A DNA stretch of 64,000 nt from Methanothrix harundinacea 6Ac (GTDB lineage: Archaea > Halobacteriota > Methanosarcinia > Methanotrichales > Methanotrichaceae): the NCBI RefSeq assembly GCF_000235565.1, contig NC_017527.1:372001-436000 (forward strand). The letters run 5' to 3'. Made by a program: the position numbers and the translations under genes. The notes under the pieces were generated by a model, which saw only the letters and a list, made by a program, of their open reading frames with translations, had not been told where the DNA came from and made no database searches. This document shows, piece by piece, positions 44,763-62,952 of this stretch. Position 1 is the first letter of the stretch, and each line of letters starts with the position of its first letter.

Positions 44763-45842
44763 ATGCCGGAGCACTTCGCTCACCGCGAGTCGCAGATGGA
44801 GGCCCTCAAGTTCTGCGTCAGGCCCGCCCTCCAGGGGGGGCGCCCCGTCAGCGCCCTCTGCCTCGGCCCCCCGGGGACGGGGAAGACGACGGCGATCTTC
44901 AAGCTCTTTTCCGAGATGGAGGCCCACTCCTCGAAGGTGGTCCCCGTCCACGTCAACTGCCAGATGGACCATACGAGGCATGCCATATTCCTGCGGATCT
45001 ACAGCAAGCTCCTCGGCCACTCCCCCCCGGCGAGCGGCGTATCCTTCAAGAGGGTCCTGGAGAGGATAGCGAAGACGCTGGCCAAGGATAACCGGGTCCT
45101 GGTGGTGGCCTTGGACGACGTCAACTACCTCTTCCCCGAAAAGGAGGTGGACCGGGTTCTATACACCCTCCTCCGGGGCCACGAGGCCTTCCCCGGGTTC
45201 CGGGCGGGGGTGATCGCCGTCCTCAGCGAGCCGGCCTTGAACTACGTCTTCGATCCCCGGGTGGGGTCGGTCTTCCAGGCGGAGGAGGTGTCTTTTCCCC
45301 TCTACACCCTGGAGGAGATCCGGGACATCCTGGGGCGGCGGGCGGGAATCGGCTTCTACCCGGGGGTGGCTTCTGGGGAGATCCTCGACAAGGTCGCAGA
45401 CCTCACCGAGCGGGCCGGGGACCTCCGGGTCGGGATCGACCTCCTCAAGAGGGCGGGGATGGAGGCGGAGAGGAGGGCCTCCCGGAGGATATCCGACGAG
45501 GACGTCGACCGGGCCTACGAGAGGTCGAGGCTCGTCCACCTATCGAGCGCCCTCAAGCCCCTCCGGGAGGAGGAGCTCCTCCTCCTAGGCCTTGCGGCGG
45601 AGATGGAGTCTGCGAGGGCGGGGGACCTCTATGAGCGGTTTCAGGCCTCCACCGGATCGGGGTACACCCGGTTCCACGAGATTCTGAATAAGCTGGACGC
45701 CGCCAGGCTCGTCGACACCGACTTCAGCGGCCCGGGTCACCGGGGGCGGTCCCGGGTCGTCCGGATCAGGTACGATCCGAAAGAGGTGCTGGCGAGGGTG
45801 AAGAAGGAGAGAGATCCACCGGGCGACGGAGAAAGTATATAG
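44763..45842 (+). CDS. Orc1/Cdc6 replication initiator (N-terminus probably begins upstream)
   Basis: 359 residues from ATG 44763: Walker A LCLGPPGTGKTTAIFKLF, Walker B-like VVALDDVNYLFPEKEVDRVL, sensor VIAVLSEPAL, and a C-terminal winged helix. This DDVN form matches the Cdc6-2-like branch of Methanosarcinales. In-frame codons before 44763 read REILLWDETIFKDREVLEF, the family's normal N-terminus, but no ATG, GTG or TTG exists between them and a stop at 44688. ACG at 44694 sits where ATG is expected, eight bases after GGGGG. The stop overlaps the pstS promoter box. Confidence 0.92.
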   Translation: MPEHFAHRESQMEALKFCVRPALQGGRPVSALCLGPPGTGKTTAIFKLFSEMEAHSSKVVPVHVNCQMDHTRHAIFLRIYSKLLGHSPPASGVSFKRVLERIAKTLAKDNRVLVVALDDVNYLFPEKEVDRVLYTLLRGHEAFPGFRAGVIAVLSEPALNYVFDPRVGSVFQAEEVSFPLYTLEEIRDILGRRAGIGFYPGVASGEILDKVADLTERAGDLRVGIDLLKRAGMEAERRASRRISDEDVDRAYERSRLVHLSSALKPLREEELLLLGLAAEMESARAGDLYERFQASTGSGYTRFHEILNKLDAARLVDTDFSGPGHRGRSRVVRIRYDPKEVLARVKKERDPPGDGESI

Positions 45843-45911
45843 AATATATAATGAACAATAGTGTAATCTGGGATAATGTAGTCTATTTATCCTATTGTCA
45901 TAAATCTTATA
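45835..45911 (+). promoter_or_regulatory. Pho-type promoter of pstS (copy 1)
   Basis: Box GTATATAGAATATAT (45835-45849) overlaps the orc1/cdc6 stop codon. The TATA box CTATTTAT is at 45883-45890 (48 bases from box start) and TTATA at 45907-45911, exactly 24 bases after the TATA start and so near the predicted transcription start. The remaining leader is about 28 bases. Confidence 0.65.
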
Positions 45912-45939
45912 GCAGATACCTGTAAGCAGATCTTCCCTG

Positions 45940-46800
45940 ATGAATAGATCGTCATTTGTCCTTTTGGTCGCCCTCTTGGCGACGGGATCGATCCTGGGAT
46001 TATCGGGATGCATAGGCGGGGATGAGGGCGGCGCTCCCGCCCCGAAGGCGGCCGGCGTGACCGTCGCCGGATCCACCACGGTGATGCCCCTGGTGGAGGC
46101 CGCCGCCGAGGAGTTCAACCGGATCCAGAAGGAGGTCCGGGTCTCCGTCACCGGTGGAGGCACCGGGGTCGGGATCAAGAACGTCGCCGGGGGGACGGCG
46201 GATATCGCCATGGCCTCCCGGGATGTAAAGCCCGAGGAGATCGCCGCCTACGGCGACGGCTTCCAGGAGCATCTCGTCGCCTACGACGCCATAGCGGTGG
46301 TCGTCAGCCAGCCGATATACGAGGGCGGGATCACCGACCTCTCTCGGGAGGAGGTGCTGGCGATCTACAGCGGAGATATAACAAACTGGAAGGGGCTGGG
46401 GGGCCCCGACGAGAGGATTTACGTGGCAGCGAGGGAGGTGGGCTCCGGGACTAGGGACACCTTCAACGAGATGGTGATGGGGACTGTCGAGGCCGAGACC
46501 CCCGGGGTCACCACCTATCACGGGAGCAACGCCGAGGTGAAGACCGCGGTGACGGGGAGCAGCAGGGCCATCGGATACCTGGGGCTGAACTACCTCGAAG
46601 GCGGTGCCCTCCGGGCAGTGGCCCTCGGGGGTGTGACCCCCTCCCCGGAGACGATCAAGGATGGCCAGTACCCGCTTTCGAGGGCCCTGAAACTCTACAC
46701 CTTCGGCGATCCGGCCCCCGGGGCCGAGAAGTTCATAGACTTCCTCCAGAGCGCCGAGGGGCAGAGGATCGTGGCGGAGTCGGGTTTCGTTCCGGTCTGA
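45940..46800 (+). CDS. pstS: Phosphate ABC transporter substrate-binding lipoprotein PstS (copy 1)
   Basis: A 286-residue PstS. The signal peptide ends in a lipobox, LGLSGCIGG (Cys near residue 26), so it is lipid-anchored. Phosphate-binding loops are VAGSTTVMPLVEAAAEEF, TGGGTGVGIKNVAGGTADIAMASR, GREVGSGT-like AREVGSGTRDTFNEMV and the hinge SSRAIGYLGLNYL. It captures phosphate outside the membrane for PstCA. It shares promoter architecture with pstS copy 2, phoA and pstC. Confidence 0.94.
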   Translation: MNRSSFVLLVALLATGSILGLSGCIGGDEGGAPAPKAAGVTVAGSTTVMPLVEAAAEEFNRIQKEVRVSVTGGGTGVGIKNVAGGTADIAMASRDVKPEEIAAYGDGFQEHLVAYDAIAVVVSQPIYEGGITDLSREEVLAIYSGDITNWKGLGGPDERIYVAAREVGSGTRDTFNEMVMGTVEAETPGVTTYHGSNAEVKTAVTGSSRAIGYLGLNYLEGGALRAVALGGVTPSPETIKDGQYPLSRALKLYTFGDPAPGAEKFIDFLQSAEGQRIVAESGFVPV

Positions 46801-47034
46801 TGACCCGGTAGAGAATCAAAGGCTACAAGTTAGGCTGGCTTCGTAGGCCGGCCTATTAATCCCCTTTCCATCCTTCATCAGAAAGCCCGGGAACCCAAGG
46901 CCCGCCGCTGATGAAGATGGGCGGCTCTTGGTCCTAGGTCTTCATCCGCCTCGATCTCGATAGCCCTGCTGGGGGCGGGCCGCCGCATTATAGCTCAATC
47001 TTCGCTCCTCTACATCGTCTTTCGATCACCGAGA
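46801..47034. other. 234-base convergent intergenic region with overlapping inverted repeats
   Basis: CTTCATCAG (46873-46881) pairs with CTGATGAAG (46908-46916). The right arm also contains GATGAAGA, which can pair with TCTTCATC about 20 bases further on. AGGCTGGC and GCCGGCCT flank TTCGTAG near 46830-46852. This may be a terminator cluster between the convergent pstS and PHP genes, or a structured RNA. No ORF seen. Confidence 0.4.
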
Positions 47035-48033
47035 TCAAAGGAGCCTCGCCATCATGAAATCCTCAATCTGGGGGACGATGGAGTTCTCCATCCTGAGGTA
47101 GATGGAGGCGGGAATTCCAGTGTTCGAGAGCCGTCGGCTGAGCCTCTCGAGGGTCCCGTAAACCCGGGGGCATCCCCTCAGCCTATCGCTGGTGAGGGCC
47201 CTGATCAGCCGGTCGAGGTTGCCGAAGCCGGTCGAGAAGTCGGATATGTCGATCCTAGCCAGATCGAGGTTGAAGATGAGCTCGATCCAGGCGTTCACCT
47301 CGTCGATGAGATCCTGCATGGTGAGGTCGCTGGTCACTATGTGGGAGTTGCCCTCGGCGATGTTCCTGAAGTACTCCCTGAAGGAGTCGCCCTTTGAGAG
47401 GGTAAGGACCTTTCCGATCATCCCCGAATGGGTATCGGTCACGGCCACTAGACCCTTCTCGTATCTCTGGGCCATCGCCATCGCGAGCTCGTTTTTTTTC
47501 GTCACTCGATGCATATTGTACTCCACCACGGGGAATAGCTCGACGATCTCGGGTATCGCCCTCAGGTTTGGCCTCTCCCCAGGTTCGAACCAGAAGGGAT
47601 GGTTGTATGTGAAGGGAAGCCCTCTCCTCTTGAGTAAGCCTACAAAGGCCCTCAAATCACCCTCCAACTCCGCTATCTCCTCCAGCTCCGCAAACTCCTC
47701 CTCATCGAGGTCGTAGACGTTTACGTGGACGGTGTGGCCTACCAGCTCTGGATCCATGATCCTGATCTCGACCCCTGTCACCAGCCCGTCCCTATCCCCC
47801 AGGACCTGGTGAGCCCTCATGGTATCGTGATCCGTGAAGGTGACGTATCCCATCCCCATCTTTTTGGCCTTCCTGTATAGCGCTTCTGGGTGAAGGGACG
47901 GAACGGGGAGGACGTCGTGAGAGAAGAGGGTGTGGACGTGAAGGTCCGCCGAACGCCATCCCTGATCCTCCAGCTCTGCCTCCTCCATCCGGGCGAAGGT
48001 CCCATCATCAAAGCCCTGTAGCTCGAACTTCAT
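47035..48033 (-). CDS. PHP-domain metal-dependent phosphoesterase
   Basis: A 332-residue protein. Metal-ligand motifs of the PHP fold are SADLHVHTLFSHD, YVTFTDHDTM, GVEIR, TYNHPFWF and VTDTHSGM. Relatives hydrolyse phosphoesters; the substrate here is unknown. Location between pstS copies and the Pho-type promoters suggests organophosphate use. Minus-strand CTATATAC (48093-48086) is its probable TATA box. The C-terminal 90 residues match no recognised domain. Confidence 0.85.
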   Translation of the reverse strand: MKFELQGFDDGTFARMEEAELEDQGWRSADLHVHTLFSHDVLPVPSLHPEALYRKAKKMGMGYVTFTDHDTMRAHQVLGDRDGLVTGVEIRIMDPELVGHTVHVNVYDLDEEEFAELEEIAELEGDLRAFVGLLKRRGLPFTYNHPFWFEPGERPNLRAIPEIVELFPVVEYNMHRVTKKNELAMAMAQRYEKGLVAVTDTHSGMIGKVLTLSKGDSFREYFRNIAEGNSHIVTSDLTMQDLIDEVNAWIELIFNLDLARIDISDFSTGFGNLDRLIRALTSDRLRGCPRVYGTLERLSRRLSNTGIPASIYLRMENSIVPQIEDFMMARLL

Positions 48034-48208
48034 CCTGATCGGTCCGCTTAAAGATGTGCAAAATCATATACCTTCCCCACTTTTTGTATATAGCGGTCGG
48101 GGATGTATTGTCCTAAATGGGGGATCGGGATCCCCCCCTCAACCATCGCCTTTCAATAGCTTCCGTTAAGGCGGATCCCATCTTTGGCGCGGGCTATGAT
48201 GCTGCGGG

Positions 48209-48275
48209 ATATATAGACTATATTTGAAGGGTATACCTTTGTAGCTCTATTTATTATATGGTGAAAAATTTTATA
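48209..48275 (+). promoter_or_regulatory. Pho-type promoter in front of a small orphan ORF
   Basis: Box-like ATATATAGACTATAT (48209-48223; 13/15 to GTATATAGAATATAT), TATA box CTATTTAT (48247-48254, 38 bases from box start) and TTATA (48271-48275, 24 bases after the TATA start). From the TATA box to the start codon it aligns with the pstS copy 2 leader without gaps, both ending GGCTGTATGA. Confidence 0.55.
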
Positions 48276-48302
48276 TCTGCTCTGGTTTCTGGTGTAGGCT
48301 GT

Positions 48303-48440
48303 ATGATTGAGTCAATAAATATGGGGAAGGATGGCGGACTCGGCCATTTATCAGAAGATTCGGAGCTGGAGCCGATCAGGGTTCAAGGGAGAGCAGAGCC
48401 TCAGATAGACCCGGTTGACCGCTGGTGGCTCGACGCCTGA
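48303..48440 (+). CDS. Small ORF of 45 codons behind a Pho-type promoter
   Basis: A short reading frame starting MIESINMGKDGGLG and ending PVDRWWLDA. It is hydrophilic and has no signal peptide or known motif. ATG 48303 is at the same position relative to the promoter as the pstS copy 2 start codon. It might be a small regulatory protein, a remnant of a lost pst gene, or non-coding. The rest of 48034-48535 shows no other gene. Confidence 0.35.
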   Translation: MIESINMGKDGGLGHLSEDSELEPIRVQGRAEPQIDPVDRWWLDA

Positions 48441-48535
48441 AACCTGATGATCATCGAGGACTTCAAAGCCCGATCACAGAATTCCGGCGTCCATAAATGT
48501 TGGTAGAGGAGAATTGATTCAACTCCGGAGGATCT

Positions 48536-48907
48536 ATGTTGCGAAAGCAGTTCACCATGAGGCCTTCTGTTTATCAGGCTCTTCTGATCGAAGCTCGGCA
48601 TAGGCAGCAGGACCTCGGGGCGGTCCTGGAGGATATGATCCTGACGTCCATCAGTCAGGAGTCCCGAGAAGCTCTTGAGAGATGGAGGCGAGATATGGAG
48701 TCCAGGCCTCCCCTGGAGGAAGACCCGGAGGCGATGGAGGCGATCAAAGATTTATGGGCCAGCTATCCGAGGCTATCCACTTTAGAGATAGGAGAGCGGA
48801 TAGGTTATCCTTACGAGGCGGTCAGCGGCGCCATCAAACGGATGCTCCAAAAGGGCGATCTTGAGCCCAGGGGGCATTTGGCATCAAAGCCAAAGAAGGG
48901 AGTATGA
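48536..48907 (+). CDS. Putative ribbon-helix-helix/winged-helix regulator
   Basis: A 123-residue protein. The N-terminus MLRKQFTMRPSVYQALLIEARH resembles a ribbon-helix-helix strand and helix. Residues 72-112 (LWASYPRLSTLEIGERIGYPYEAVSGAIKRMLQKGDL) read as a winged helix-turn-helix. CGGAGGATCT precedes ATG 48536. No named family recognised. Its place among Pho-type promoters makes it a candidate local regulator; this is inference. Confidence 0.6.
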   Translation: MLRKQFTMRPSVYQALLIEARHRQQDLGAVLEDMILTSISQESREALERWRRDMESRPPLEEDPEAMEAIKDLWASYPRLSTLEIGERIGYPYEAVSGAIKRMLQKGDLEPRGHLASKPKKGV

Positions 48908-49189
48908 AATCTATCGGCAATTTATCATCATAATCATAAGGCACTGGGGCCAATCCGGGGATCTATACTACCGAGATGCGGCGGGAGCATCCGGCTTTAT
49001 CGGATTTGTCGGGATAATCGCCTCGAAAAGCGGCCTCGAAGCATCTAATTTACGAGATATCACCTCTGGTGGTTACGATATCAGGCGGCAGGATATGGCG
49101 GAGCATTGGCTTTCCCAGCGGTATTATGAAGCCGAAAATCGGAGGGAGCAGCGCTGGCGCAAAAAGTGCCAGCGCGACTCTGCTTATCG
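48908..49189. other. 282-base intergenic region with terminator hairpin
   Basis: Less GC-rich than the flanks. A weak reading frame (48861-49217, plus) overlaps the regulator gene and the terminator, and I do not accept it. The clear element is the hairpin at 49151-49175. Nothing else recognised. Confidence 0.5.
49151..49175 (-). terminator. Hairpin terminator of the secreted-protein pair
   Basis: GCGCTGGC (49151-49158) and GCCAGCGC (49168-49175) pair perfectly and extend by a C:G and a G:T pair around an AAAAA loop (TTTTT on the minus strand). It begins 15 bases past the stop of the minus-strand gene at 49190. Confidence 0.6.
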
Positions 49190-50161
49190 TCAAGATTTGA
49201 GAGGATATCTTCCGTAATTTGGCATATTGAGGGACTGTTCTCTGGATTTGTCCCCCCAAGACTTCCCCCACGCAACGTCGCGACAGGTGCAGTCGAAGAT
49301 CCCCTTCTCGTCCCATAACTTGTCGTCTCCGTCCATGGAGCCGTAGCCGCCTATGCAGCAGGAGAGCCAGTCAGCCCTCAAACTCGATTTGGGCTTGCAG
49401 GCTAAATATTCCATGTTCTTCTGGATCTTGAAGGTGCCCACATAGTTCTCATCGATCTCGATCTTGGGATTCTTCCATCCATTGTTGCCCTTACAATCGT
49501 CCCCTGTACCTGCCACCAGCTCGCCGATGTGGACAGTACCTTCTGTAACCTCTTCTTCGATCCTCATCCTGGCAAGGCCGTAGCCGTCTTCAGGCGATGA
49601 GGTGTAACCTGCTTTAGATCCGACCACATCCCTACATTGGAGATCGACGCCGATGTCCTTCACGAAGGCTGAAGCGTACTCGATCTGGTGATGCATCGAG
49701 ACCCCCATCCCATCCTGGCGGTTCTTCCCCCAAGTCTTCTCCTTCAGCTTCGAGTTGTAGATTATGGGGTTCTCAGCGTAGTAGCCGGTCCCATAAGCCA
49801 TAGCCACGGGGGCGTATACCATCTCGTTCTGCTCCAGGAAGGAGATGTTGTTGCTATACGCTTTCTGTTTATCACCCAGATAGACGTGGGAAATTCTATC
49901 CTGCTTACAATATTCGTTCATGCTCTTGTTCGAGCTGATCAGCGTTGCAGCGTCTATGGTGCCGCTTCCGTGCATATAGTTCAGAAGCTGGAGGTTTTCT
50001 GCGTTGACGCTATGGCGGACCATGGCGAAGCCCTCTCCTTCTACGTCCTGCTGGAAAGTGTGTTCGTATTGTTTATCCCAGGCCGCGGATGCGGATGCTG
50101 CCATTAGTAGCAGCAGGGCGACCGAAATACCAGCTTTGATAATCTCTTCAAACTTTCTCAT
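49190..50161 (-). CDS. Secreted protein of unknown function, cysteine-containing
   Basis: A 323-residue protein with a signal peptide (residues 1-27, ISVALLLLMAASASAA) and no later transmembrane segment. The mature part begins WDKQYEHTFQQDVEGEGFA and is rich in Tyr, Asn and Gly, with cysteines concentrated in the C-terminal third (CKPKSSLRADWLSCCIGG, FDCTCRDVAWG). Base composition is visibly less GC-rich than neighbouring genes, hinting at transfer or special selection. No family recognised. ATGA overlap couples it to the gene at 50158. Confidence 0.75.
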   Translation of the reverse strand: MRKFEEIIKAGISVALLLLMAASASAAWDKQYEHTFQQDVEGEGFAMVRHSVNAENLQLLNYMHGSGTIDAATLISSNKSMNEYCKQDRISHVYLGDKQKAYSNNISFLEQNEMVYAPVAMAYGTGYYAENPIIYNSKLKEKTWGKNRQDGMGVSMHHQIEYASAFVKDIGVDLQCRDVVGSKAGYTSSPEDGYGLARMRIEEEVTEGTVHIGELVAGTGDDCKGNNGWKNPKIEIDENYVGTFKIQKNMEYLACKPKSSLRADWLSCCIGGYGSMDGDDKLWDEKGIFDCTCRDVAWGKSWGDKSREQSLNMPNYGRYPLKS

Positions 50162-50460
50162 ACAATCCCTCCTGACCCGGCGGGACTGGGGGACGGTGGG
50201 CCTTCGGCACCGCTCCGATCCTCTGAGGCGAGGGGGGCCTCTGAAAAAGAGATTGTTAAGGGTGCATCGAAGTCGTCATATACTTCGTTGGGTGCCGATC
50301 GACAGCCTCCTCCAGCCCATTCGAGATCGAGGCGGTGGCCGTCATGATCAACGGCGGCCAAGGATGGGGCCGAGGCCATCAGCCCCACCATCAGGCCCGC
50401 CCAGATCACCATCAGGCCTGCCCAGATCTTCATCATCGTCCCTAAACCCCTCATAAACAT
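50158..50460 (-). CDS. Small secreted protein coupled to the larger one
   Basis: Up to 100 residues. The N-terminus MKIWAGLMVIWAGLMVGLMASAPSLA is a signal peptide in which IWAGLMV is duplicated by a 21-bp tandem repeat (50391-50432). The mature part (AVDHDGHRLDLEWAGGGC...) is acidic with a Ser/Pro-rich tail. The start could be the first ATG at 50460 or an internal ATG at 50433. Its stop overlaps the next start, so both are probably made together. Confidence 0.6.
   Translation of the reverse strand: MFMRGLGTMMKIWAGLMVIWAGLMVGLMASAPSLAAVDHDGHRLDLEWAGGGCRSAPNEVYDDFDAPLTISFSEAPLASEDRSGAEGPPSPSPAGSGGIV
50391..50432. repeat. Two tandem copies of a 21-bp repeat
   Basis: Two adjacent 21-base units, each starting ACCATCAGGC and ending GCCCAGATC, differ at one base. 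They duplicate seven residues inside the signal peptide of the gene at 50158. Confidence 0.85.
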
Positions 50461-50762
50461 CCCAGTTGACGGATCTGCCCCCTCGAATCCCGACCATCGA
50501 GCCGGCAGATACTCCCCCCGGGCGGGGTTACAATATAAAATTAATCACAATAATATAAATAGATCTACAGGCCAGGAGTATCGAACTTTCCTGTATATAT
50601 CGACAATTTAAGTATATATTCTCAATACCATGCTCCCGATCCGGCTTTAGTATATAGAATATATGTCGAATCATCGTCTATATACGCGAAAGTTGGGTGG
50701 GGGCATCTATTTATTTTATTGCGAATAAGTTTATACGGCAATCCAGCAGGGTGGGGGGCTGT
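50461..50762. other. 302-base AT-rich regulatory region upstream of pstS copy 2
   Basis: Besides the main promoter (50650-50735) it holds GTATATAT (50593-50600) and an inverted box copy, ATATATTCTCAATAC (50614-50628; 13/15 to the reverse complement of GTATATAGAATATAT). CTATATAC (50678-50685) is the mirror of GTATATAG (50650-50657) across 20 bases. The left part may serve the minus-strand secreted genes. No ORF accepted. Confidence 0.55.
50650..50735 (+). promoter_or_regulatory. Pho-type promoter of pstS (copy 2)
   Basis: Box GTATATAGAATATAT (50650-50664), TATA box CTATTTAT (50707-50714, 57 bases from box start) and TTATA (50731-50735, 24 bases after the TATA start). The leader to ATG 50763 is about 28 bases and contains GGTGGGGGG. 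Confidence 0.65.
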
Positions 50763-51590
50763 ATGAGCATCAAGTCAAAATCCGTCTTGACCGGCGTCCT
50801 CGTGGCGGCCTTGCTTTTGGCCGCCGGAACCGCCGCAGCTCTGTCGGTATCGGGGTCGACCACCGTCCTGCCCTTCGGCGCCTCCTGCGCCGAGGAGTTC
50901 AACGCCGCCCAGAGCGCCGTCCAGGTCTCCGTCACCGGGGGCGGCTCCGGCGTGGGGATCAAGAACGTAGCCGAGGGGATCAGCGACGTCGCCATGGCCT
51001 CGAGGCCCGTCAAGGACTCCGAGAAGGAGGCTTACCCTGACGAGGAGTTCGTCGAGGTTCTGGCGGCCTACGATGCAGTCTGCATCGCCGTCAGCCAGGC
51101 GGTATACGACGCCGGCGTCACTGAGCTCTCCGCGGAGGAGGTCCGGGCTATCTACAACGGCGAGATCACCAGCTGGGCCCAGCTCGGAGGCGATGATGAG
51201 AAGATCTACGTCCTCGGCCGCGAGGTCGGCTCCGGAACGAGGGACACCTTCAACGAGATCGTGATGGGGAGCGACAAGGCCGAGACCCCGGGGGTCACCA
51301 CCAGCCACGGCAGCAACGCTGAGGTGAAGACCGCCCTGACCAAGAGCGACCGCGCCATCGGCTACCTCGGCCTCAACTACATCATGGATGGAGCCCTTGC
51401 TGCCATCGCCTTCGAGGGTGTTGAGCCTTCGGCTGAGACGATAAAGGACGGGTCCTATCCCCTGGCAAGAGAGCTCTACATGGTAACCTATGGCGAGCCG
51501 ACCGAGGACGCCCAGGCCTTCCTGGACTTCGTCACCGGTGATGATGGTCAGGCCATCGCCGAGGAGCTCGGCTTCGTCTCGATACTCTGA
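50763..51590 (+). CDS. pstS: Phosphate-binding protein PstS (copy 2)
   Basis: A 275-residue PstS with a signal peptide, SVLTGVLVAALLLAAGTAAAL, and no lipobox cysteine, so it may be released or held by other means. Binding loops are VSGSTTVLPFGASCAEEF, TGGGSGVGIKNVAEGISDVAMASR, GREVGSGTRDTFNEIV and SDRAIGYLGLNYI. It is more similar to copy 1 than to copy 3. Its own Pho-type promoter and a strong terminator make it monocistronic. Confidence 0.94.
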   Translation: MSIKSKSVLTGVLVAALLLAAGTAAALSVSGSTTVLPFGASCAEEFNAAQSAVQVSVTGGGSGVGIKNVAEGISDVAMASRPVKDSEKEAYPDEEFVEVLAAYDAVCIAVSQAVYDAGVTELSAEEVRAIYNGEITSWAQLGGDDEKIYVLGREVGSGTRDTFNEIVMGSDKAETPGVTTSHGSNAEVKTALTKSDRAIGYLGLNYIMDGALAAIAFEGVEPSAETIKDGSYPLARELYMVTYGEPTEDAQAFLDFVTGDDGQAIAEELGFVSIL

Positions 51591-51613
51591 TCTTGAATAG
51601 ACGATGATCGCCA

Positions 51614-51644
51614 GCCCGGGGCCTCTTGGGCTTGGGCCCCGGGC
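51614..51644 (+). terminator. Perfect 10-bp hairpin after pstS copy 2
   Basis: GCCCGGGGCC (51614-51623) and GGCCCCGGGC (51635-51644) pair exactly around 11 bases, 24 bases past the stop. A GTTTTTTCTT run follows at about 51664-51673. Together they make a convincing terminator. Confidence 0.65.
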
Positions 51645-51787
51645 CCTCCCTCTGCATGGAGCCGTTTTTTCTTGATTCTCGCAAAGTCAATCCATCTCTC
51701 CGAGCCGACGATCCGGTGCTTCTTCCGATGGGTGAAGGGCGGTGGCGGGGAAAGATTGATATTATTTTGAGAGAGGTCTTGAAGAGG

Positions 51788-52645
51788 ATGACGAGGCCCG
51801 AATCGGTCTTGACCTGGGTTGTGGTGGCCGTCTTCGTCGCGGCCGGGGCGGTCTTATACCTCATCGCCGGGGATGAGCTCCTCCGCGACCACCTTGAGGG
51901 GGCATCTTCGACCATATCGGTGGCGGGCTCGACCACCGTCCTTCCTTTGGCCGAGGCCTGCGCCCGGGAGTTCCATAAAGGTCAGAGGGACGCCGTCGTC
52001 ACCGTCGCCGGGGGCGGGACCGATGCGGGGATCGAGGAGCTGGCGGCGGGGAAGATCGATATCGCCATGGCATCCCGAAAGGTCGGAGAGGGCGAGATGG
52101 AGGGGCTGGGCGCCAGCTTTGAAGAGCACCCCATAGCCCTGGACGGCGTGGCCATAGTCGTCAGCCGGCCCATCTTCGAGGCGGGAGTGGATGAGCTGAG
52201 CCGCCACCAGGTCTCGGCGATCTACAGCGGAGATGTCGCCAGCTGGAAGGATCTTGGCGGCCCCGACCTGGAGATCGTCGCCGTATCGAGGTCTCATGGG
52301 TCTGGGACCGGCGAGATCTTCAGCGAGAGGGTGGCAACCCCCGGAGTCTCAATATACCTCGATAGCGGCGCCGATGTGGAGCGGTATGTGGCAAGAAGCG
52401 ACAGGGCGATAGGGTATATCGGATTGAACCTCGCCTTTGACGACGAGCTCGGGGTCATAGCCTACGAGGGGGTCGTCCCCTCGGCGGCATCGGTGAGGGA
52501 TGGTTCTTACCCCCTCGCGAGGACCCTCTACATGTACACCCTGGGGGAGGCCGACCCGGAGGAGGTGGCGTTTCTGGAGTTCGTCACCGGAGAGGGGGGC
52601 CGATCGATCGCCGAGGATCTGGGCTTCGTCCCGATCTCGGCGTAG
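51788..52645 (+). CDS. PstS-like phosphate-binding protein with N-terminal membrane anchor (copy 3)
   Basis: A 285-residue diverged PstS. Residues 8-28 (LTWVVVAVFVAAGAVLYLIAG) form an uncleaved-looking signal anchor without lipobox. Binding loops are VAGSTTVLPLAEACAREF, AGGGTDAGIEELAAGKIDIAMASR, SRSHGSGTGEIF and SDRAIGYIGLNLA. I use ATG 51788, which opens the anchor; a longer frame from 51626 would cross the leader. No Pho-type box is seen upstream; GATATTATTTTGAG near 51758-51771 may be its TATA region. Confidence 0.85.
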   Translation: MTRPESVLTWVVVAVFVAAGAVLYLIAGDELLRDHLEGASSTISVAGSTTVLPLAEACAREFHKGQRDAVVTVAGGGTDAGIEELAAGKIDIAMASRKVGEGEMEGLGASFEEHPIALDGVAIVVSRPIFEAGVDELSRHQVSAIYSGDVASWKDLGGPDLEIVAVSRSHGSGTGEIFSERVATPGVSIYLDSGADVERYVARSDRAIGYIGLNLAFDDELGVIAYEGVVPSAASVRDGSYPLARTLYMYTLGEADPEEVAFLEFVTGEGGRSIAEDLGFVPISA

Positions 52646-52695
52646 CCTCGGCTGGAGCACTCCCCCCCCAATTAATCCGATCGGCGAACCCCGAT

Positions 52696-52959
52696 TCAGC
52701 AGGCCTCCGTTCCTGGGGGGCCGCACCTCTCGAAGGCGTGGGCGAGGATCGTCCTGGTGGCGACGACCCCCTCCACCTCCCGGACTGTATCGACGAGGCC
52801 GTTGAGGGCCAGAAGTCCCTCCACCTGGACGTCCAGCAATAGATCGAAGTCTCCAAAGAGGATGTACATCCTATTGATCCCGGAGAGGCCCCGGAGGGCG
52901 GCGTGGACCCTCCTCTCGTGGCCGGGGACCGTCTTCAACATGATTATGCCGTTTACCAT
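52696..52959 (-). CDS. Lrp/AsnC ligand-binding (RAM) domain protein
   Basis: An 87-residue stand-alone RAM domain: NGIIMLKTVPGHERRVHAAL, MYILFGDFDLLLDVQVEGLLAL and the final ATRTILAHAFERCG. No helix-turn-helix is present, so it cannot bind DNA alone; such proteins can sense amino acids or pair with full-length Lrp regulators. It lies downstream of phoA on the same strand. Confidence 0.85.
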   Translation of the reverse strand: MVNGIIMLKTVPGHERRVHAALRGLSGINRMYILFGDFDLLLDVQVEGLLALNGLVDTVREVEGVVATRTILAHAFERCGPPGTEAC

Positions 52960-53074
52960 TTTTCATCCACCTCAATGTGAAATAATCTGAAGATAGACCC
53001 TTTTTGTGAACCCTTAATCCCTTCTCCTCCCAAAATCGAGGGCCTCAAAAAGGGGAGATCCGGCGAGGAGCTCT

Positions 53075-54334
53075 TCAGAGCCCCATCGCCGCTTTCAAGA
53101 TTTCGAAGACCTCGGTGTTGTCGATGAGCCCCCGGGAAAATTCGATCGCCCCAGGGCCGCTCGCGAAGATGGGGACGTCGGTGGCGGTGTGGGATGCCTC
53201 CTCCAGGATCTGGAGGTCGGCGTAGGAGTCGCTGACGGGGTAGGCTCCGGATCCGAAGTTGGGGGCCCAGCCCTCGATGTACTCGCTGCTGTTGGCTCCC
53301 AGAACCAGGCCTCCGCACTCGTGGTCAGCGGTGACGACCACCAGGGTCTCAGGGTTTTCGGCCGCGTAGTCCAGGGCTACCTTGACGGCCTCGTCGAAGG
53401 CTAGGGTGTCACCGACCGCCCTCTTGTAGTCCCGGGCGTGGCCGGCGTGGTCTATCCTCGCCCCCTCCACAATGAGGAAGAAGCCGTCATCGTCCCTGGA
53501 GAGGATTTCGATGGCCTTCTCGGTCATCTCCGCCAGGCTCGGCTCGGCGGCGGGGTCTCGATCCAGCTCGTAGGACATATGGGAGTCGGTGAAGATTCCG
53601 AGGAGCCTATCGGTGGAGGCGGGGTCCACCGCTGAAAGCTCCCTCCCGTTTCTGACCACAGTCCATCCCAGGGAGGGTGCCTCTTCCAGGAGGCTTCTGT
53701 TGTCGAAGGAGAACTTGCTCGCGCCGCCTCCCATGGCCACCTCCATATCGCTCTCGATGCACTGCTCTGCGATCTCATCCTCCCAGTCCCGGAAGGCGAC
53801 GTGGGAGTAGTATCCGGCAGGGGTGGCGTGGGTGATCCTGGAGGTGCTGACGACGCCGGTGGCCTTTCCTGCCTCATCGGCCATCTCCAGGATCGTCTTC
53901 AGGGGAACGGCGTACAGAGTGGCGTTATTCCGTCCCATGATCTCGCCATGAGCTGTGATGTTGCCGACGCTGATGACGTCGTTGTAGGTCTTCTGGCCGG
54001 TGGCCATGGCCGTCACCGCGGCGGCGGAGTCGGTGATCCAGCTGTCCAGGGAGTGGGTGGAGATGTGCCCAGCATACTCCATCCCGTCCATGTACAGCCT
54101 GGTAGTCTGGTAGTTGTCCAGGGTGGGCTGGTAGCCGGGCTGGTCTCCGCCGGCCTTCTCCCATCGCGCGGCGGTGAGCTGGGCGTATCCCATGCCGTCG
54201 CCGATCAGGAATATGACGCTCTTTGCACCGTCTGCTGTTTCCTCTCCAACCTCCGCTCCCATGGCCGTCATGGGAAGCGAAGCTGTAGCGAACAATATCG
54301 CCAAAACCCAGAGGGTTGAATGGTTCCTTCTCAT
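53075..54334 (-). CDS. phoA: Alkaline phosphatase
   Basis: A 419-residue secreted enzyme. A signal peptide (residues 1-26, STLWVLAILFATASLPMTAMG) precedes IFLIGDGMGYAQLTAAR. The nucleophile is Ser in WITDSAAAVTAMATG; zinc and magnesium ligands lie in VEGARIDHAGHARD, VTADHECGGLVLG and EASHTATDVPIFASGPG. It releases phosphate from organic esters outside the cell. A Pho-type promoter 157-171 bases upstream implies a leader of about 105 bases. GAGGTATAGGG precedes the ATG. Confidence 0.95.
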   Translation of the reverse strand: MRRNHSTLWVLAILFATASLPMTAMGAEVGEETADGAKSVIFLIGDGMGYAQLTAARWEKAGGDQPGYQPTLDNYQTTRLYMDGMEYAGHISTHSLDSWITDSAAAVTAMATGQKTYNDVISVGNITAHGEIMGRNNATLYAVPLKTILEMADEAGKATGVVSTSRITHATPAGYYSHVAFRDWEDEIAEQCIESDMEVAMGGGASKFSFDNRSLLEEAPSLGWTVVRNGRELSAVDPASTDRLLGIFTDSHMSYELDRDPAAEPSLAEMTEKAIEILSRDDDGFFLIVEGARIDHAGHARDYKRAVGDTLAFDEAVKVALDYAAENPETLVVVTADHECGGLVLGANSSEYIEGWAPNFGSGAYPVSDSYADLQILEEASHTATDVPIFASGPGAIEFSRGLIDNTEVFEILKAAMGL

Positions 54335-54438
54335 CCCTATACCTCATCAGTCAGTTTTCGCGGCGTTTCTGCGGCACAAGTCAGTCATTTCAGAAGGGGG
54401 CTCCGCCATCGCCGCGATCGACTGAAGGAGATGGGTCT

Positions 54439-54505
54439 ATGTAAGAGTTGCACAAATATAATAAATAGTCTTACTTATTTCATAGTCTCCATATTTTCTA
54501 TATAG
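54439..54505 (-). promoter_or_regulatory. Pho-type promoter of phoA
   Basis: Reading the minus strand: box CTATATAGAAAATAT (54505-54491; 13/15 to the identical box of the pst genes), TATA box CTATTTAT (54468-54461, 37 bases from box start) and TTACAT (54444-54439), 24 bases after the TATA start. Confidence 0.6.
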
Positions 54506-54587
54506 ATCGGGCCCCCTGGACCTGTAACCGGGTCGCCCTCCTCCCCCTGAGCAGAGGTTGGATAAAGGTCAGCCCAGCCCACGTATT

Positions 54588-54646
54588 GTATATAGAATAT
54601 ATTCCCGAATTTTCTCTATATATTTAATGTGGGCAAGTTGCTTATA
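54588..54646 (+). promoter_or_regulatory. Pho-type promoter of pstC (copy 1)
   Basis: Box GTATATAGAATATAT (54588-54602) is identical to those of pstS copies 1 and 2. CTATATAT (54616-54623) serves as TATA box, 28 bases from the box start, and TTATAGCAG (54642-54650), also present in the pstS copy 1 leader, follows 26 bases later. Confidence 0.65.
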
Positions 54647-54668
54647 GCAGGGGGCCCTCGACGCCTCC

Positions 54669-55586
54669 ATGGATCTTTCGAAGAAGAGAAGAGGACCAAT
54701 CCGCCGCCAGGTCGGCGAGCGGATCATCGAGTCCTCCTTCTTCTTCGCCGCCATCGCCTCGATCCTGGTGATGGTCCTCATCTTCTACTTCCTGATCCGC
54801 GAGAGCCTTGTAGCCTTCCAGGAGGTGGGTGTATTCGACCTCGTCTTCGGGATGAAGTGGCACTCCGCCGGGGAGATCTTCGGTATGACCCCCATCATCG
54901 TGGGATCGATCATGGTGACCCTCCTCGCCCTCATCATCAACATCGCCGTGGGGGTTCCCCTGGCGGTGTACCTCTCGGAGCTGGCCGGACCCAGGAGCCG
55001 CTCGATATTGAAGCCGGCGATAGAGCTCTTGGCCGGGGTCCCCTCCATCGTATACGGCTTCCTCGGGGTCCTCATTCTCGTCGCCTACCTGGAGCGGAGC
55101 TTCGATATGCTGACGGGCCGGTCGATCCTGGCGGGGTCGATCCTCCTTGGGATCATGTTCATCCCCGCCCTGACGACGATCTGCGAGGACGCCCTCCGGG
55201 CCGTCCCCCGGGAGTTCAAGGAGGGGTCCCTGGCTCTGGGGGCGACCCGGTGGCAGACGGTCCGGCGGGTCACCCTCCCGGCCGCCTCCTCCGGGATCAT
55301 CGCCGCCGTCGTCCTCAACGTCGGGAACATCATCGGTGAGACGATGGCCGCCCTCCTGGTGGTGGGGAACGTGGCGCGGCTGCCTTCCCCCATCTTCGAC
55401 GTCTTCGACCCCAGCGCCATCTTCACCTCCGTCATCGCCGGGGAGATGGGGGAGGTTCCCCACGGATCGATCCACTACCATGCCCTCTTCGCCGTCGGTT
55501 TCGTCCTCCTCGCCATCGTCACCCTCCTCAACATCTCGGCGGACCTGGTCAGGGCTGCCATCAAGAAGAAGTTCGGTGGATATTGA
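54669..55586 (+). CDS. pstC: Phosphate ABC transporter permease PstC (copy 1)
   Basis: A 305-residue permease with about six transmembrane segments. The conserved region near the cytoplasmic loop reads EDALRAVPREFKEGSLALGATRWQT, the EAA motif that contacts the ATPase. ELLAGVPSIVYGFLGV and the C-terminal HALFAVGFVLLAIV are PstC-typical. With PstA it forms the phosphate channel. It is nearly duplicated by the next gene. Confidence 0.93.
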   Translation: MDLSKKRRGPIRRQVGERIIESSFFFAAIASILVMVLIFYFLIRESLVAFQEVGVFDLVFGMKWHSAGEIFGMTPIIVGSIMVTLLALIINIAVGVPLAVYLSELAGPRSRSILKPAIELLAGVPSIVYGFLGVLILVAYLERSFDMLTGRSILAGSILLGIMFIPALTTICEDALRAVPREFKEGSLALGATRWQTVRRVTLPAASSGIIAAVVLNVGNIIGETMAALLVVGNVARLPSPIFDVFDPSAIFTSVIAGEMGEVPHGSIHYHALFAVGFVLLAIVTLLNISADLVRAAIKKKFGGY

Positions 55587-55622
55587 CGGAGCTGCCGACG
55601 ATCTCCGCCGATCGGGACCCAG

Positions 55623-55670
55623 ATATATAGCGGTACCTACCCTATATAGTGAATATAGATAAGTGCTTTA
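55623..55670 (+). promoter_or_regulatory. Weak Pho-type promoter of pstC (copy 2)
   Basis: Half-box ATATATAG (55623-55630), TATA-like CTATATAG (55642-55649, 19 bases from half-box start) and CTTTAAG beginning 24 bases after the TATA start. It is the most degenerate member of the set. Confidence 0.4.
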
Positions 55671-55690: not shown

Positions 55691-56617
55691 ATGAATAGCA
55701 TGGACCACCCAGAGAAGCGGAGGCCGCCCCGGTCTCGCAGATACGGCGATCGCTTTGTGGAGGCGCTCCTATTCTCTGCCGCCATCACCTCCATCCTGGC
55801 GATGCTTCTGATCTTCTACTTCCTCACCTTCGAGAGCTTCCTCGCCTTCCGGGAGGTGGGGGTCTTCGATATGCTCCTGGGGCAGAAGTGGCATCCCGCC
55901 GGGGAGGTCTTCGGGATGGCGCCGATCATAGCGGGCTCAGTCCTCATCACCACCATCGCCCTCATCATAAACATCCTGGTGGGGGTGCCCCTGGCGATAT
56001 ACCTCTCGGAGCTCGCGGGCCGCCGGTCCCGGGAGTTTCTAAAGCCGGCGATAGAGCTCTTGGCCGGGGTCCCCTCCATCGTCTACGGCTTCCTCGGAGT
56101 CCTCGTCCTGGTGGTTTACCTGGAGCGGAGCTTCAACATGCTGACGGGCCGGTCGATCCTGGCGGGGGCGATCCTCCTCGGGATCATGTTCATCCCCGCC
56201 CTGACGACGATCTGCGAGGACGCCCTCAGGGCCGTCCCCAAGGAGTTCAAGGAGGGGTCTCTGGCCCTGGGGGCGACCCGCTGGCAGACGGTCCGGCGGG
56301 TCACCCTCCCGGCCGCCTCCTCGGGGATCATAGCCGCCGTCATCCTCAACGTCGGCCGGATCATCGGGGAGACGATGGCCGCCCTCCTGGTGGTGGGGAA
56401 TGTGGCCCGTCTGCCGTCCCCCATCTTCGACGCCTTCGACCGGGGCGCCATCTTCACCTCGGTCATCGCCGGGGAGATGGGGGAGGTGGCCCACGGATCG
56501 ATCCACTACCACGCCCTCTTCGCCGTCGGTTTCGTCCTCCTCGCCATCGTCACCATCCTGAACATCTCGGCGGACCTCGTCAGGGCGGCGATCCAGAAGC
56601 GGTTTGGAGGGTACTGA
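55691..56617 (+). CDS. pstC: Phosphate ABC transporter permease PstC (copy 2)
   Basis: A 308-residue near-duplicate of the preceding permease, with the same EAA loop (EDALRAVPKEFKEGSLALGATRWQT) and membrane pattern. The N-terminal 40 residues differ most. Long blocks of DNA are identical to copy 1. It is followed after one base by pstA. ATG 55691 or the ATG three codons later could start. Confidence 0.92.
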   Translation: MNSMDHPEKRRPPRSRRYGDRFVEALLFSAAITSILAMLLIFYFLTFESFLAFREVGVFDMLLGQKWHPAGEVFGMAPIIAGSVLITTIALIINILVGVPLAIYLSELAGRRSREFLKPAIELLAGVPSIVYGFLGVLVLVVYLERSFNMLTGRSILAGAILLGIMFIPALTTICEDALRAVPKEFKEGSLALGATRWQTVRRVTLPAASSGIIAAVILNVGRIIGETMAALLVVGNVARLPSPIFDAFDRGAIFTSVIAGEMGEVAHGSIHYHALFAVGFVLLAIVTILNISADLVRAAIQKRFGGY

Positions 56618-56618
56618 T

Positions 56619-57893
56619 ATGAAGAAGATCAGGCCAGTTCCCCTGGCCTCGATCGCCGTCGCCCTCGTCATCCTCACATCTTCTCTCGTCTACCTCGTCC
56701 TCCAGCCCGGCAAGATCCCCCTCGTCTCCTTCTGGATGGGGGGGCTCCTCCTCAACCTCCTCCTCATCTCCGCCTCGGCCCTCGCCCTCCGCCGGGAGGC
56801 GCAGGATGGTGCCCCCTCCCTCTGGACCGCGGGACGGCTCCTTCCGCTGTCGGCAGATCTCGTCTACATCCTGGCCGTCGTCCTTTTGATCTCCTCCGGC
56901 CGGGTCGGCCCAGACCTAAAGCTCGAGCTTCTGGGGCTGAGCGCCGTCTTCACCTACCCCATCGTCCTCCCCTTCCTCGTATTCATCGGGAGCTTCCTTG
57001 CGATAAAGGACTCCATCAACCTCCTCTACGGTTACAGCTCCCGGGGGAGGGAGGTCCTCGTCTTCTCCATGGTCCGGCTCTCAGCGGTCTTCACCCTCCT
57101 CCTTCTGGGGGGGATCATATCCGTCATCCTCTTCCGGGGGATCGGGGCGATAAGCTGGGAGTTTCTGACCCAGCCTCACTTCCGCCTCGGGACGGAGGGG
57201 GGGATCAGCACCTGCATCCAGGGTACCTTCTGGCTGGTGATGGGGGCGATGCTCATCTCCGCCCCCCTGGGGATCGGGGCCGCCATCTACCTCAACGAGT
57301 ACTCCAGGCACTCCGGGCTGAAGCGGGTCGTCACCATCGCCGTCGGCTGTCTCAACGGCGTCCCCTCCGTCGTCTACGGCCTCTTCGGCCTCGCCTTTTT
57401 GGTCGCGACCTTCGGCCTCTCGCTCTTGGCGGGGTCGATCATCCTGGGGCTGATGAACCTGCCGACGATCATCCTCACCAGCCAGGAGGCGCTGAAGAGC
57501 GTTCCAAACTCCTTGCGGGAGGGGAGCGTCGCCCTGGGGGCTAGCAGGTGGCAGACGGTGAGGAAGGTGGTCATCCCCTCGGCCCTCCCCGGGGTCCTGA
57601 CGGGGCTGATCATCGGAGTGGCGAGGGCCGCCGGCGAGACGGCCCCGATTATGTGGACCGCCGTCACCTTCTCCGCCACCCCCGTCACCATGTACTACGG
57701 CGTCGTCCCCGACGTCACCCAGCCCGTCAACAACCTCTGCTACCACCTCCTCAACCTGATCTACTTCCTGGGGGCCTGGGACGTGGAGGAGAAGGCCTGG
57801 GGGACGGCCCTCGTCCTCCTGGCCCTGGTCCTATCCATCAACATGGTGGCGATCTTCGTCAGGAACCACTACCGAAAGAAGATCTCGTGGTGA
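56619..57893 (+). CDS. pstA: Phosphate ABC transporter permease PstA with extended N-terminus
   Basis: A 424-residue protein. The C-terminal 280 residues are PstA: GGISTCIQGTFWLVMGAML, GCLNGVPSVVYGLFGLAF, the EAA loop SQEALKSVPNSLREGSVALGASRWQT and ARAAGETAPIMWTAVTF. About 135 extra N-terminal residues add four hydrophobic segments (residues about 7-27, 32-55, 70-90, 100-128), as in some long PstA forms. I use ATG 56619 after GGAGGG. pstB does not follow. Confidence 0.92.
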   Translation: MKKIRPVPLASIAVALVILTSSLVYLVLQPGKIPLVSFWMGGLLLNLLLISASALALRREAQDGAPSLWTAGRLLPLSADLVYILAVVLLISSGRVGPDLKLELLGLSAVFTYPIVLPFLVFIGSFLAIKDSINLLYGYSSRGREVLVFSMVRLSAVFTLLLLGGIISVILFRGIGAISWEFLTQPHFRLGTEGGISTCIQGTFWLVMGAMLISAPLGIGAAIYLNEYSRHSGLKRVVTIAVGCLNGVPSVVYGLFGLAFLVATFGLSLLAGSIILGLMNLPTIILTSQEALKSVPNSLREGSVALGASRWQTVRKVVIPSALPGVLTGLIIGVARAAGETAPIMWTAVTFSATPVTMYYGVVPDVTQPVNNLCYHLLNLIYFLGAWDVEEKAWGTALVLLALVLSINMVAIFVRNHYRKKISW

Positions 57894-62481: not shown

Positions 62482-62562
62482 TTAGATTGGGGATTTGGAT
62501 AAACAAAAATAACCTATTTATATGAGAATGATTTTGTAACCAGAAAAATAGCTGTGGTATTT

Positions 62563-62952
62563 ATGAGACAATTTTCGGTCAAAGTCTTGGACGACGACGA
62601 CCGGGAGTTCGTCGAGGTCCTCCGGGACCTGGGCATCCCCCGGAACGTCGCCAGCATGATCACCTACCTCGCCAACGTCCAGGAGGCTACCTCCCGGGAG
62701 ATCGAGATCGGATCCAACCTCCGCCAGCCCGAGGTAAGCATCGCCATGAGGGCCCTTCGGAACAACGGCTGGGTCGAGGAGCGGGAGGTCAAGAAGGACG
62801 GGAAGGGGAGGCCGATGAAGGTCTACCGGCTGATAAGATCTCTTGAGGAGATCATAACCCACTTCGAAGAGGAGAAGAGGCTGGAGTCTACACGGGTTAT
62901 GGAAGACATTGGCCGGCTGAAGGATCTGAGCGGAAGGCTCAGCAGCATCTGA
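62563..62952 (+). CDS. Winged-helix transcriptional regulator (TrmB/ArsR-like)
   Basis: A 129-residue protein. Residues 20-80 form a winged helix: VLRDLGIPRNVASMITYLANVQEATSREIEIGSNLRQPEVSIAMRALRNNGWV with wing KKDGKGRPMKVYRL. A C-terminal coiled coil (EEIITHFEEEKRLESTRV) likely dimerises. I use ATG 62563; GTG 62554 is three codons upstream. CTATTTAT (62514-62521) is its TATA box, without the TTATA element or Pho-type box. Target genes unknown. Confidence 0.82.
   Translation: MRQFSVKVLDDDDREFVEVLRDLGIPRNVASMITYLANVQEATSREIEIGSNLRQPEVSIAMRALRNNGWVEEREVKKDGKGRPMKVYRLIRSLEEIITHFEEEKRLESTRVMEDIGRLKDLSGRLSSI

What the first reader, a model, noticed from the sequence alone, without database searches (positions are those of the whole stretch)
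45835..55670. A shared promoter box, GTATATAGAATATAT, marks every phosphate-scavenging transcription unit: candidate archaeal Pho box
Seen directly: the 15-mer is identical before pstS copy 1 (45835), pstS copy 2 (50650) and pstC copy 1 (54588). It recurs at 13/15 before phoA on the other strand (54505-54491) and before a small ORF (48209), with an inverted 13/15 copy at 50614-50628. In GC-rich DNA this is far from chance. All named targets act in phosphate uptake or release. No archaeal Pho-box of this form is known to me.
Basis: partly seen in the sequence, partly recalled or inferred. Interest (0 to 1): 0.85.

Follow-up and report, generated by a model that had tools for sequence, protein, structure and literature searches.

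The report
Phosphate-starvation switch in acetate-eating methanogens
A short, nearly palindromic DNA sign sits in front of almost every phosphate-uptake gene of this methane-producing archaeon and its relatives, at distances that go up in steps of about one DNA turn, so it is very probably the binding site of a phosphate-response regulator, most likely a fused AbrB-PhoU protein whose own operon carries the most perfect copy of the sign.

Summary
The 15-mer has three exact copies in the window and three with two mismatches (0.09 expected). Genome-wide there are only three exact copies and one 1-mismatch copy. The fourth lies outside the window, before a pstS-pstB-phoU-[AbrB-PhoU] operon, so the four best sites of the genome all precede pst genes. 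The true core is a palindrome, TATATAG-N-CTATATA. In 50 Methanotrichaceae genomes this occurs about once per genome, and 29 of 30 checked copies lie directly before pstS/pstB. In Methanosarcinaceae it marks pstS promoters (17 of 30 at <=2 mismatches; 0 of 30 thermosome controls), often as tandem arrays.

The 'inverted copy' is the box of a divergent promoter. All the window promoters share a second element (CTATTTATNNTATT...TTTATA, probably an unusual TATA box plus melting region). Box-to-TATA distances form a ladder of about 9.6 bp.

Best reading: the operator of a phosphate regulon in Methanosarcinales, most likely bound by the AbrB-PhoU fusion protein and acting as a helically phased activator site. 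Regulator and sign of regulation are inferred, not shown. Pho boxes are reported in Halobacterium, so this is a new variant of a known kind.

The parts
45835..45849 (+). Pho box of pstS copy 1 (pstS_a), exact; 48 bp upstream of the TATA-like CTATTTAT. Overlaps the stop codon of the upstream Orc1/Cdc6-like gene
   Evidence: conserved in 7 genus members
45883..45911 (+). core promoter of pstS_a: CTATTTATCCTATTGTCATAAATCTTATA
   Evidence: footprint nearly invariant through the genus
45940..46800 (+). pstS_a, phosphate-binding protein
   Evidence: Pfam PBP_like_2 1.6e-44
48209..48223 (+). Pho box of small ORF E (ATATATAGACTATAT; palindromic), 38 bp from CTATTTAT
48247..48276 (+). core promoter of small ORF E
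48303..48440 (+). small ORF E, 45 aa, no family match, conserved in genus
50614..50628 (-). Pho box (degenerate) of the divergent minus-strand promoter, 66 bp from its CTATTTAT
50533..50562 (-). core promoter CTATTTATATTATTGTGATTAATTTTATAT of the minus-strand unit
50158..50460 (-). ORF X100, 100 aa, first gene of the minus-strand unit, no family match
49190..50161 (-). ORF X323, 323 aa, probably exported, no family match
50650..50664 (+). Pho box of pstS copy 2 (pstS_b), exact; 57 bp from CTATTTAT (a weaker site occupies the 38-bp position, which is the strong one in relatives)
50707..50736 (+). core promoter of pstS_b
50763..51590 (+). pstS_b (likely start 50763), NCBIfam ptsS_2
51626..52645 (+). 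pstS copy 3 (pstS_c), no box of its own, presumably co-transcribed
54491..54505 (-). Pho box of phoA (CTATATAGAAAATAT), 37 bp from CTATTTAT
54437..54468 (-). core promoter of phoA
53075..54334 (-). phoA, alkaline phosphatase
   Evidence: Pfam PF00245 1.9e-91
54588..54602 (+). Pho box of the pstC1-pstC2-pstA unit, exact; 28 bp from CTATATAT
54616..54647 (+). core promoter of pstC1 (CTATATATTTAATGTGGGCAAGTTGCTTATAG)
54669..55586 (+). pstC1 permease
   Evidence: Pfam BPD_transp_1
55691..56617 (+). pstC2 permease (named by similarity to pstC1)
56604..57893 (+). pstA-like permease (named by reading the ORF)

Best explanation
The box is the operator of a phosphate (Pho) regulon. Its core is the 7-1-7 palindrome TATATAG-N-CTATATA, probably bound by a dimer, one half per half-site. 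Most likely the binder is the AbrB/SpoVT-PhoU fusion encoded in the box-controlled operon pstS-pstB-phoU-[AbrB-PhoU] outside the window: the AbrB/MazE-type domain reads the palindrome, the PhoU domain senses phosphate-transport status, and the operon is autoregulated. When phosphate is scarce the bound regulator activates from upstream positions lying on one face of the helix (28, 37/38, 48, 57, 66 bp before CTATTTAT, a TATA box without an evident BRE that would need help). In Methanosarcinaceae several sites follow one another in the same register. Shown here: the sites, their genome specificity, conservation, palindrome, spacing register, and the fusion gene in the controlled operon. Inferred: the operator controls phosphate genes by phosphate (about 0.93); AbrB-PhoU is the binder (about 0.6); activation rather than repression at most sites (about 0.6).
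For: Six sites in the window against 0.09 expected. All 4 genome sites with <=1 mismatch precede pst genes. Orthologous promoters in 8 same-genus genomes keep the box and core as islands in otherwise diverged sequence. The exact palindrome gives 31 sites in 30 of 50 family genomes; 29 of 30 loci are directly upstream of pstS/pstB. Methanosarcinaceae pstS promoters: 17/30 with <=2 mismatches (dinucleotide shuffle 0.75) and 67 sites with <=3 (5.9); thermosome promoters 0/30 and 0 sites. Spacing ladder: six window promoters R=0.95 at 9.6 bp, p 0.003-0.008; ten promoter classes R=0.98, none of 20,000 simulations. Lineage-specific indels of 10, 19 and 29 bp keep the register. In Methanosarcinaceae, pair spacings of 9/10, 19, 28/29, 38: 30 pairs versus 0.18. 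AbrB-PhoU: MazE/AbrB domain and PhoU both above Pfam cut-offs; found in 119 of 120 class genomes; the perfect palindrome precedes its operon in several genera. A SpoVT/AbrB-PhoU protein (TK2245) was found among chromosome-associated proteins of Thermococcus (PMC7325993).
Against: No binding or expression data. AbrB-PhoU is near-universal while the box is not: thermophilic Methanothrix (genus g6) have AbrB-PhoU but no box before pstB, and several non-genus pstS promoters have only degenerate sites. Sites in the TM36 promoter overlap TATA and start, and the pstB-operon site is 24 bp from its TATA, off the ladder; both fit repression as well as activation. The ladder step is 9.6, not 10.5 bp. Part of the 9-bp spacing in arrays comes from self-overlap of the motif (19, 28 and 38 do not). 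Some turnover sites have 3 mismatches.
Confidence: 0.62

Rival explanations
1. Same phosphate operator, but bound by a different transcription factor (for example a winged-helix protein encoded elsewhere); AbrB-PhoU is only a target or a signal relay.
For: AbrB-PhoU occurs in genomes without the box. Most archaeal factors are winged-helix (73% in Pyrococcus furiosus, PMC6316755).
Against: The one DNA-binding-domain protein encoded in a box-controlled operon is AbrB-PhoU, conserved with the perfect box across genera. The only HTH gene next to a window box (48536-48907) was not found in the relatives examined.
Confidence: 0.3
2. The box is a repressor site: the regulator binds at high phosphate and shuts the promoters, as PhoU logic in bacteria would suggest.
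For: In the pstB operon the site abuts the BRE/TATA, and in the TM36 promoter it overlaps TATA and start.
Against: In the other promoters the sites end 13 or more bp upstream of the TATA box and begin up to 66 bp away, yet keep helical register, which is typical of activation. Halobacterium pho boxes are reported as essential for up-regulation (PMC6560208 citing Furtwaengler 2010).
Confidence: 0.3
3. The element is an ordinary AT-rich core promoter (TATA) sequence that stands out only because the genome is GC-rich.
For: At <=3 mismatches the motif is no more frequent than its reversed control.
Against: At <=1 mismatch all sites are pst-specific. In AT-rich Methanosarcinaceae pstS promoters have 67 sites and thermosome promoters none. 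A separate TATA-like element lies downstream of each window box.
Confidence: 0.03
4. The identical promoters are recent duplications of one pst unit, so the shared box is common descent of paralogues rather than selection.
For: The genome holds several pstS and two pstC paralogues.
Against: phoA, ORF E and the X100 unit are unrelated genes on both strands. Sequence between box and core is not visibly alike between promoters and distances differ by ladder steps. Box and core persist while flanks diverge between species.
Confidence: 0.03

Closest known systems
Pho boxes (P boxes) of the pst1 and pst2 promoters of Halobacterium salinarum (Furtwaengler et al. 2010, known here only through citing papers)
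   Same: Archaeal cis elements in promoters of phosphate ABC transporters, called binding motifs of PhoU regulators and essential for induction (PMC6560208).
   Different: That paper is not held, so the sequences could not be compared; scans of 17 loci carrying AbrB-PhoU, nearly all haloarchaeal, showed no clear TATATAGNCTATATA-type operator. Here the regulon includes phoA, exported and small proteins, with a helical spacing register.
PHO stimulon of Methanosarcina mazei
   Same: phoA and the pstSCAB-phoU operons rise 2.5-6.5-fold on phosphate starvation in a member of the same order (PMC6864096).
   Different: No promoter element or regulator was named in the passages read; here the pstS promoters of Methanosarcinaceae are shown to carry the palindrome in arrays.
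Bacterial PhoB Pho box (E. coli type, from general knowledge)
   Same: Tandem sites upstream of pst/phoA in register with the core promoter.
   Different: PhoB sites are 11-bp direct repeats of another sequence bound by a two-component response regulator; here a palindrome with a 9.5-bp register, and a one-component AbrB-PhoU candidate.
AbrB/SpoVT-PhoU fusion regulators of archaea (e.g. Haloferax PhoU2, Thermococcus TK2245)
   Same: Domain architecture, linkage to pst genes, predicted transcriptional role (PMC6267482, PMC7325993).
   Different: I found no DNA target site for this fusion family in the papers searched; this would be a candidate first one.

Membership tests
Pho box / phosphate-regulon operator | Present upstream of several physically separate phosphate-acquisition units | tested here: met
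   pstS_a, pstS_b, pstCCA, phoA, pstS-pstB-phoU
Pho box / phosphate-regulon operator | Specific to those units in the genome | tested here: met
   4/4 sites at <=1 mismatch; 29/30 perfect palindromes over 30 genomes
Pho box / phosphate-regulon operator | Conserved in orthologous promoters of relatives | tested here: met
   lost or degenerate in thermophilic Methanothrix
Pho box / phosphate-regulon operator | Required for response to phosphate | not testable with these tools
   no expression data
Halobacterium P box | Same sequence motif | not testable with these tools
   paper not held; own scan of haloarchaeal loci inconclusive
Bacterial PhoB Pho box | 11-bp direct repeats of the CTGTCAT type | tested here: not met
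   the conserved unit is TATATAGNCTATATA with a 9-10 bp register
Bacterial PhoB Pho box | PhoB/PhoR two-component pair in the genome | not tested
   not searched
AbrB/SpoVT-PhoU regulator (candidate binder) | N-terminal AbrB/MazE-type DNA-binding domain plus PhoU repeats | tested here: met
   PF04014 36.5 bits (cut-off 24.7) and PF01895 91.2 bits
AbrB/SpoVT-PhoU regulator (candidate binder) | Binds the box | not testable with these tools
   needs EMSA or footprint

The most novel reading that the evidence does not exclude
Methanosarcinales use a one-component Pho system: an AbrB-PhoU fusion protein that is phosphate-status sensor and transcription factor in one, assembling on a helically phased array of TATATAGNCTATATA sites whose last register position is the TATA box itself. 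This would be an independent archaeal counterpart of the PhoB array, also governing two previously unnoticed small proteins.
Probability: 0.4. Interest if true: 0.78.

Novelty: new variant of a known kind. Interest (0 to 1): 0.62.

Why it matters
How archaea sense phosphate and switch on scavenging genes is poorly known. Halobacterium pho boxes and the induction of M. mazei pst and phoA genes are on record, but in the papers searched I found no operator for methanogens and no DNA target for the widespread AbrB-PhoU fusion proteins. This gives a precise operator sequence, a defined regulon in the main acetate-consuming methanogens, a testable regulator, and a spacing rule (9.6-bp ladder to the TATA box) that speaks to how archaeal activators contact the basal machinery.

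Tried and rejected
(1) HTH gene at 48536-48907 next to the ORF E box as regulator: not found in the relatives' loci examined, only marginal family matches. (2) Second element TCTATTTATNNTATTG as an independent operator elsewhere: the only other <=1-mismatch site in the genome is intragenic (1763162, L064), so it belongs to these promoters. Leader and Shine-Dalgarno positions make CTATTTAT the likely TATA box and TTTATA the melting region (reading). (3) Relaxed genome scans at 3 mismatches: no signal above the reversed control. (4) Haloarchaeal AbrB-PhoU loci: no clear equivalent box. (5) phoA in Methanosarcinaceae: few genomes have it, best sites only 4-6 mismatches; inconclusive. (6) AlphaFold model of AbrB-PhoU from 6 close sequences: PhoU part confident, residues 1-130 pLDDT <50, so no support for the DNA-binding part. 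(7) Original papers on Halobacterium Pst regulation not held.
Full report
Observation. The six sites are present at the stated coordinates with the stated mismatches, against 0.09 expected for <=3 mismatches in dinucleotide shuffles of the window. The window lies at C2:372001-436000 of a 2.57 Mb, two-contig genome. Closest named relatives are Methanothrix harundinacea bins; from memory the contig size fits M. harundinacea 6Ac.

Genome specificity. Only three exact sites and one 1-mismatch site exist genome-wide; the reversed control pattern has none at <=1 mismatch. The fourth site (C2:2300417, GTATATAGACTATAT) precedes another pstS, then pstB, phoU and a phoU fused to an AbrB/MazE-type domain. 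Thus the missing pstB of the window cluster is encoded 1.87 Mb away under the same box. At 3 mismatches the pattern is no commoner than its control (87 versus 99), so loose scans are uninformative.

What the element is. The best sites reveal a palindrome TATATAG-N-CTATATA; the exact 15-mer of the window is this with the second half changed to ATATAT. In 50 Methanotrichaceae genomes the exact palindrome occurs 31 times in 30 genomes; of 30 loci inspected, 29 lie directly upstream of pstS or pstB. The exception (L262) is near an mscL-like gene. Phylogenetic footprints of the window promoters and the pstB-operon promoter show box and core as conserved islands.

Second element. Window promoters share CTATTTAT-NN-TATT...TTTATA 28-66 bp after the box start; genome-wide the only three exact TCTATTTATNNTATTG sites are the promoters of pstS_a, pstS_b and the divergent unit at 50562, with ORF E at one mismatch and phoA at two. 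pstC1 has a variant, CTATATAT...TTATAG. Because Shine-Dalgarno-like sequence follows TTTATA within about 25 nt, I read CTATTTAT as the TATA box (weak BRE) and TTTATA as the melting region. This is inference.

Spacing. Box to CTATTTAT/CTATATAT is 28 (pstC), 37 (phoA), 38 (ORF E), 48 (pstS_a), 57 (pstS_b) and 66 (X100). In relatives pstS_b uses 38, and X100 uses 47, 57, 66 or 76 through indels of 10, 19 and 29 bp. Rayleigh length is 0.95 at 9.6 bp for the six window promoters (p 0.003-0.008 against uniform placement, period free) and 0.98 for ten classes (0 of 20,000). Independent support: in Methanosarcinaceae pstS promoters, distances between neighbouring sites peak at 9, 19, 28, 38 and 48 (30 ladder pairs versus 0.18 in shuffles; 9 bp in five genera, 19 in four, 28 and 38 in three). 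The 9-bp value is partly self-overlap of the motif; the longer ones are not.

Reach. Methanosarcinaceae pstS promoters: 17/30 have a <=2-mismatch site and 67 <=3-mismatch sites, against 0.75 and 5.9 in shuffles and 1.1% of background windows; thermosome promoters of the same family have none. Thermophilic Methanothrix (genus g6) seem to have lost it before pstB.

Regulator. The AbrB-PhoU fusion is the best candidate: it is encoded in a box-controlled operon, has DNA-binding and phosphate-signalling domains, is found in 119 of 120 genomes of the class, and its N-terminus METRKVQ-TG-ST is conserved to haloarchaea. [quoted passage not shown] Its wider distribution than the box is a caution. The structure model did not resolve the DNA-binding part.

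Regulon. Seven units: pstS_a, ORF E (45 aa), X100/X323, pstS_b(-pstS_c), phoA, pstC1-C2-A, pstS_d-pstB-phoU-AbrBphoU. In addition there is TM36, a 33-36-aa single-helix membrane peptide found in all nine genus genomes, with tandem boxes overlapping TATA and start; its sign of regulation may be opposite.

Known or new. Halobacterium pho boxes exist in the literature, and M. mazei phosphate induction is measured without an operator. In the papers searched I found no description of this motif, its ladder, or a target of AbrB-PhoU. Hence a new variant of a known kind.

Noticed in passing
G000:C2:2455874 (L015:1501-1647), outside the window; orthologues L334-L342: TM36: a 33-36 aa single-TM peptide conserved in all nine genomes of the genus and not found elsewhere in the family, with two tandem boxes 17 bp apart overlapping TATA and start.
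   Followed up: partly
45831-45849: The pstS_a box overlaps the end and stop codon of the upstream Orc1/Cdc6-like ORF (44763-45842), and does so in several relatives too.
   Followed up: partly
48303-48440: A 45-aa small protein with its own box, conserved (53-56%) in the genus, function unknown.
   Followed up: partly
49190-50460 (-): X100/X323 unit under a degenerate box; X323-like genes also lie about 3 kb upstream of pstB in thermophilic Methanothrix (L116, L117, L119, L225). Possibly an exported or sheath protein.
   Followed up: no
L105:7832-8554: An endonuclease V gene follows AbrB-PhoU in the same direction, so a DNA-repair enzyme may be in the phosphate operon.
   Followed up: no
48536-48907: 123-aa protein with weak winged-helix match next to the ORF E box, not found in the relatives' loci examined.
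   Followed up: partly
62554-62952: MreA-family transcriptional regulator (NCBIfam NF053756, 2.4e-46).
   Followed up: no
L262:1501-1515: The one perfect palindrome found not next to pst genes, between a ferredoxin/CDGSH-like gene and an mscL-like gene.
   Followed up: partly
L225, L116, L117, L119: Thermophilic Methanothrix (genus g6) keep AbrB-PhoU but lack the box before pstB; how they regulate phosphate uptake is open.
   Followed up: partly
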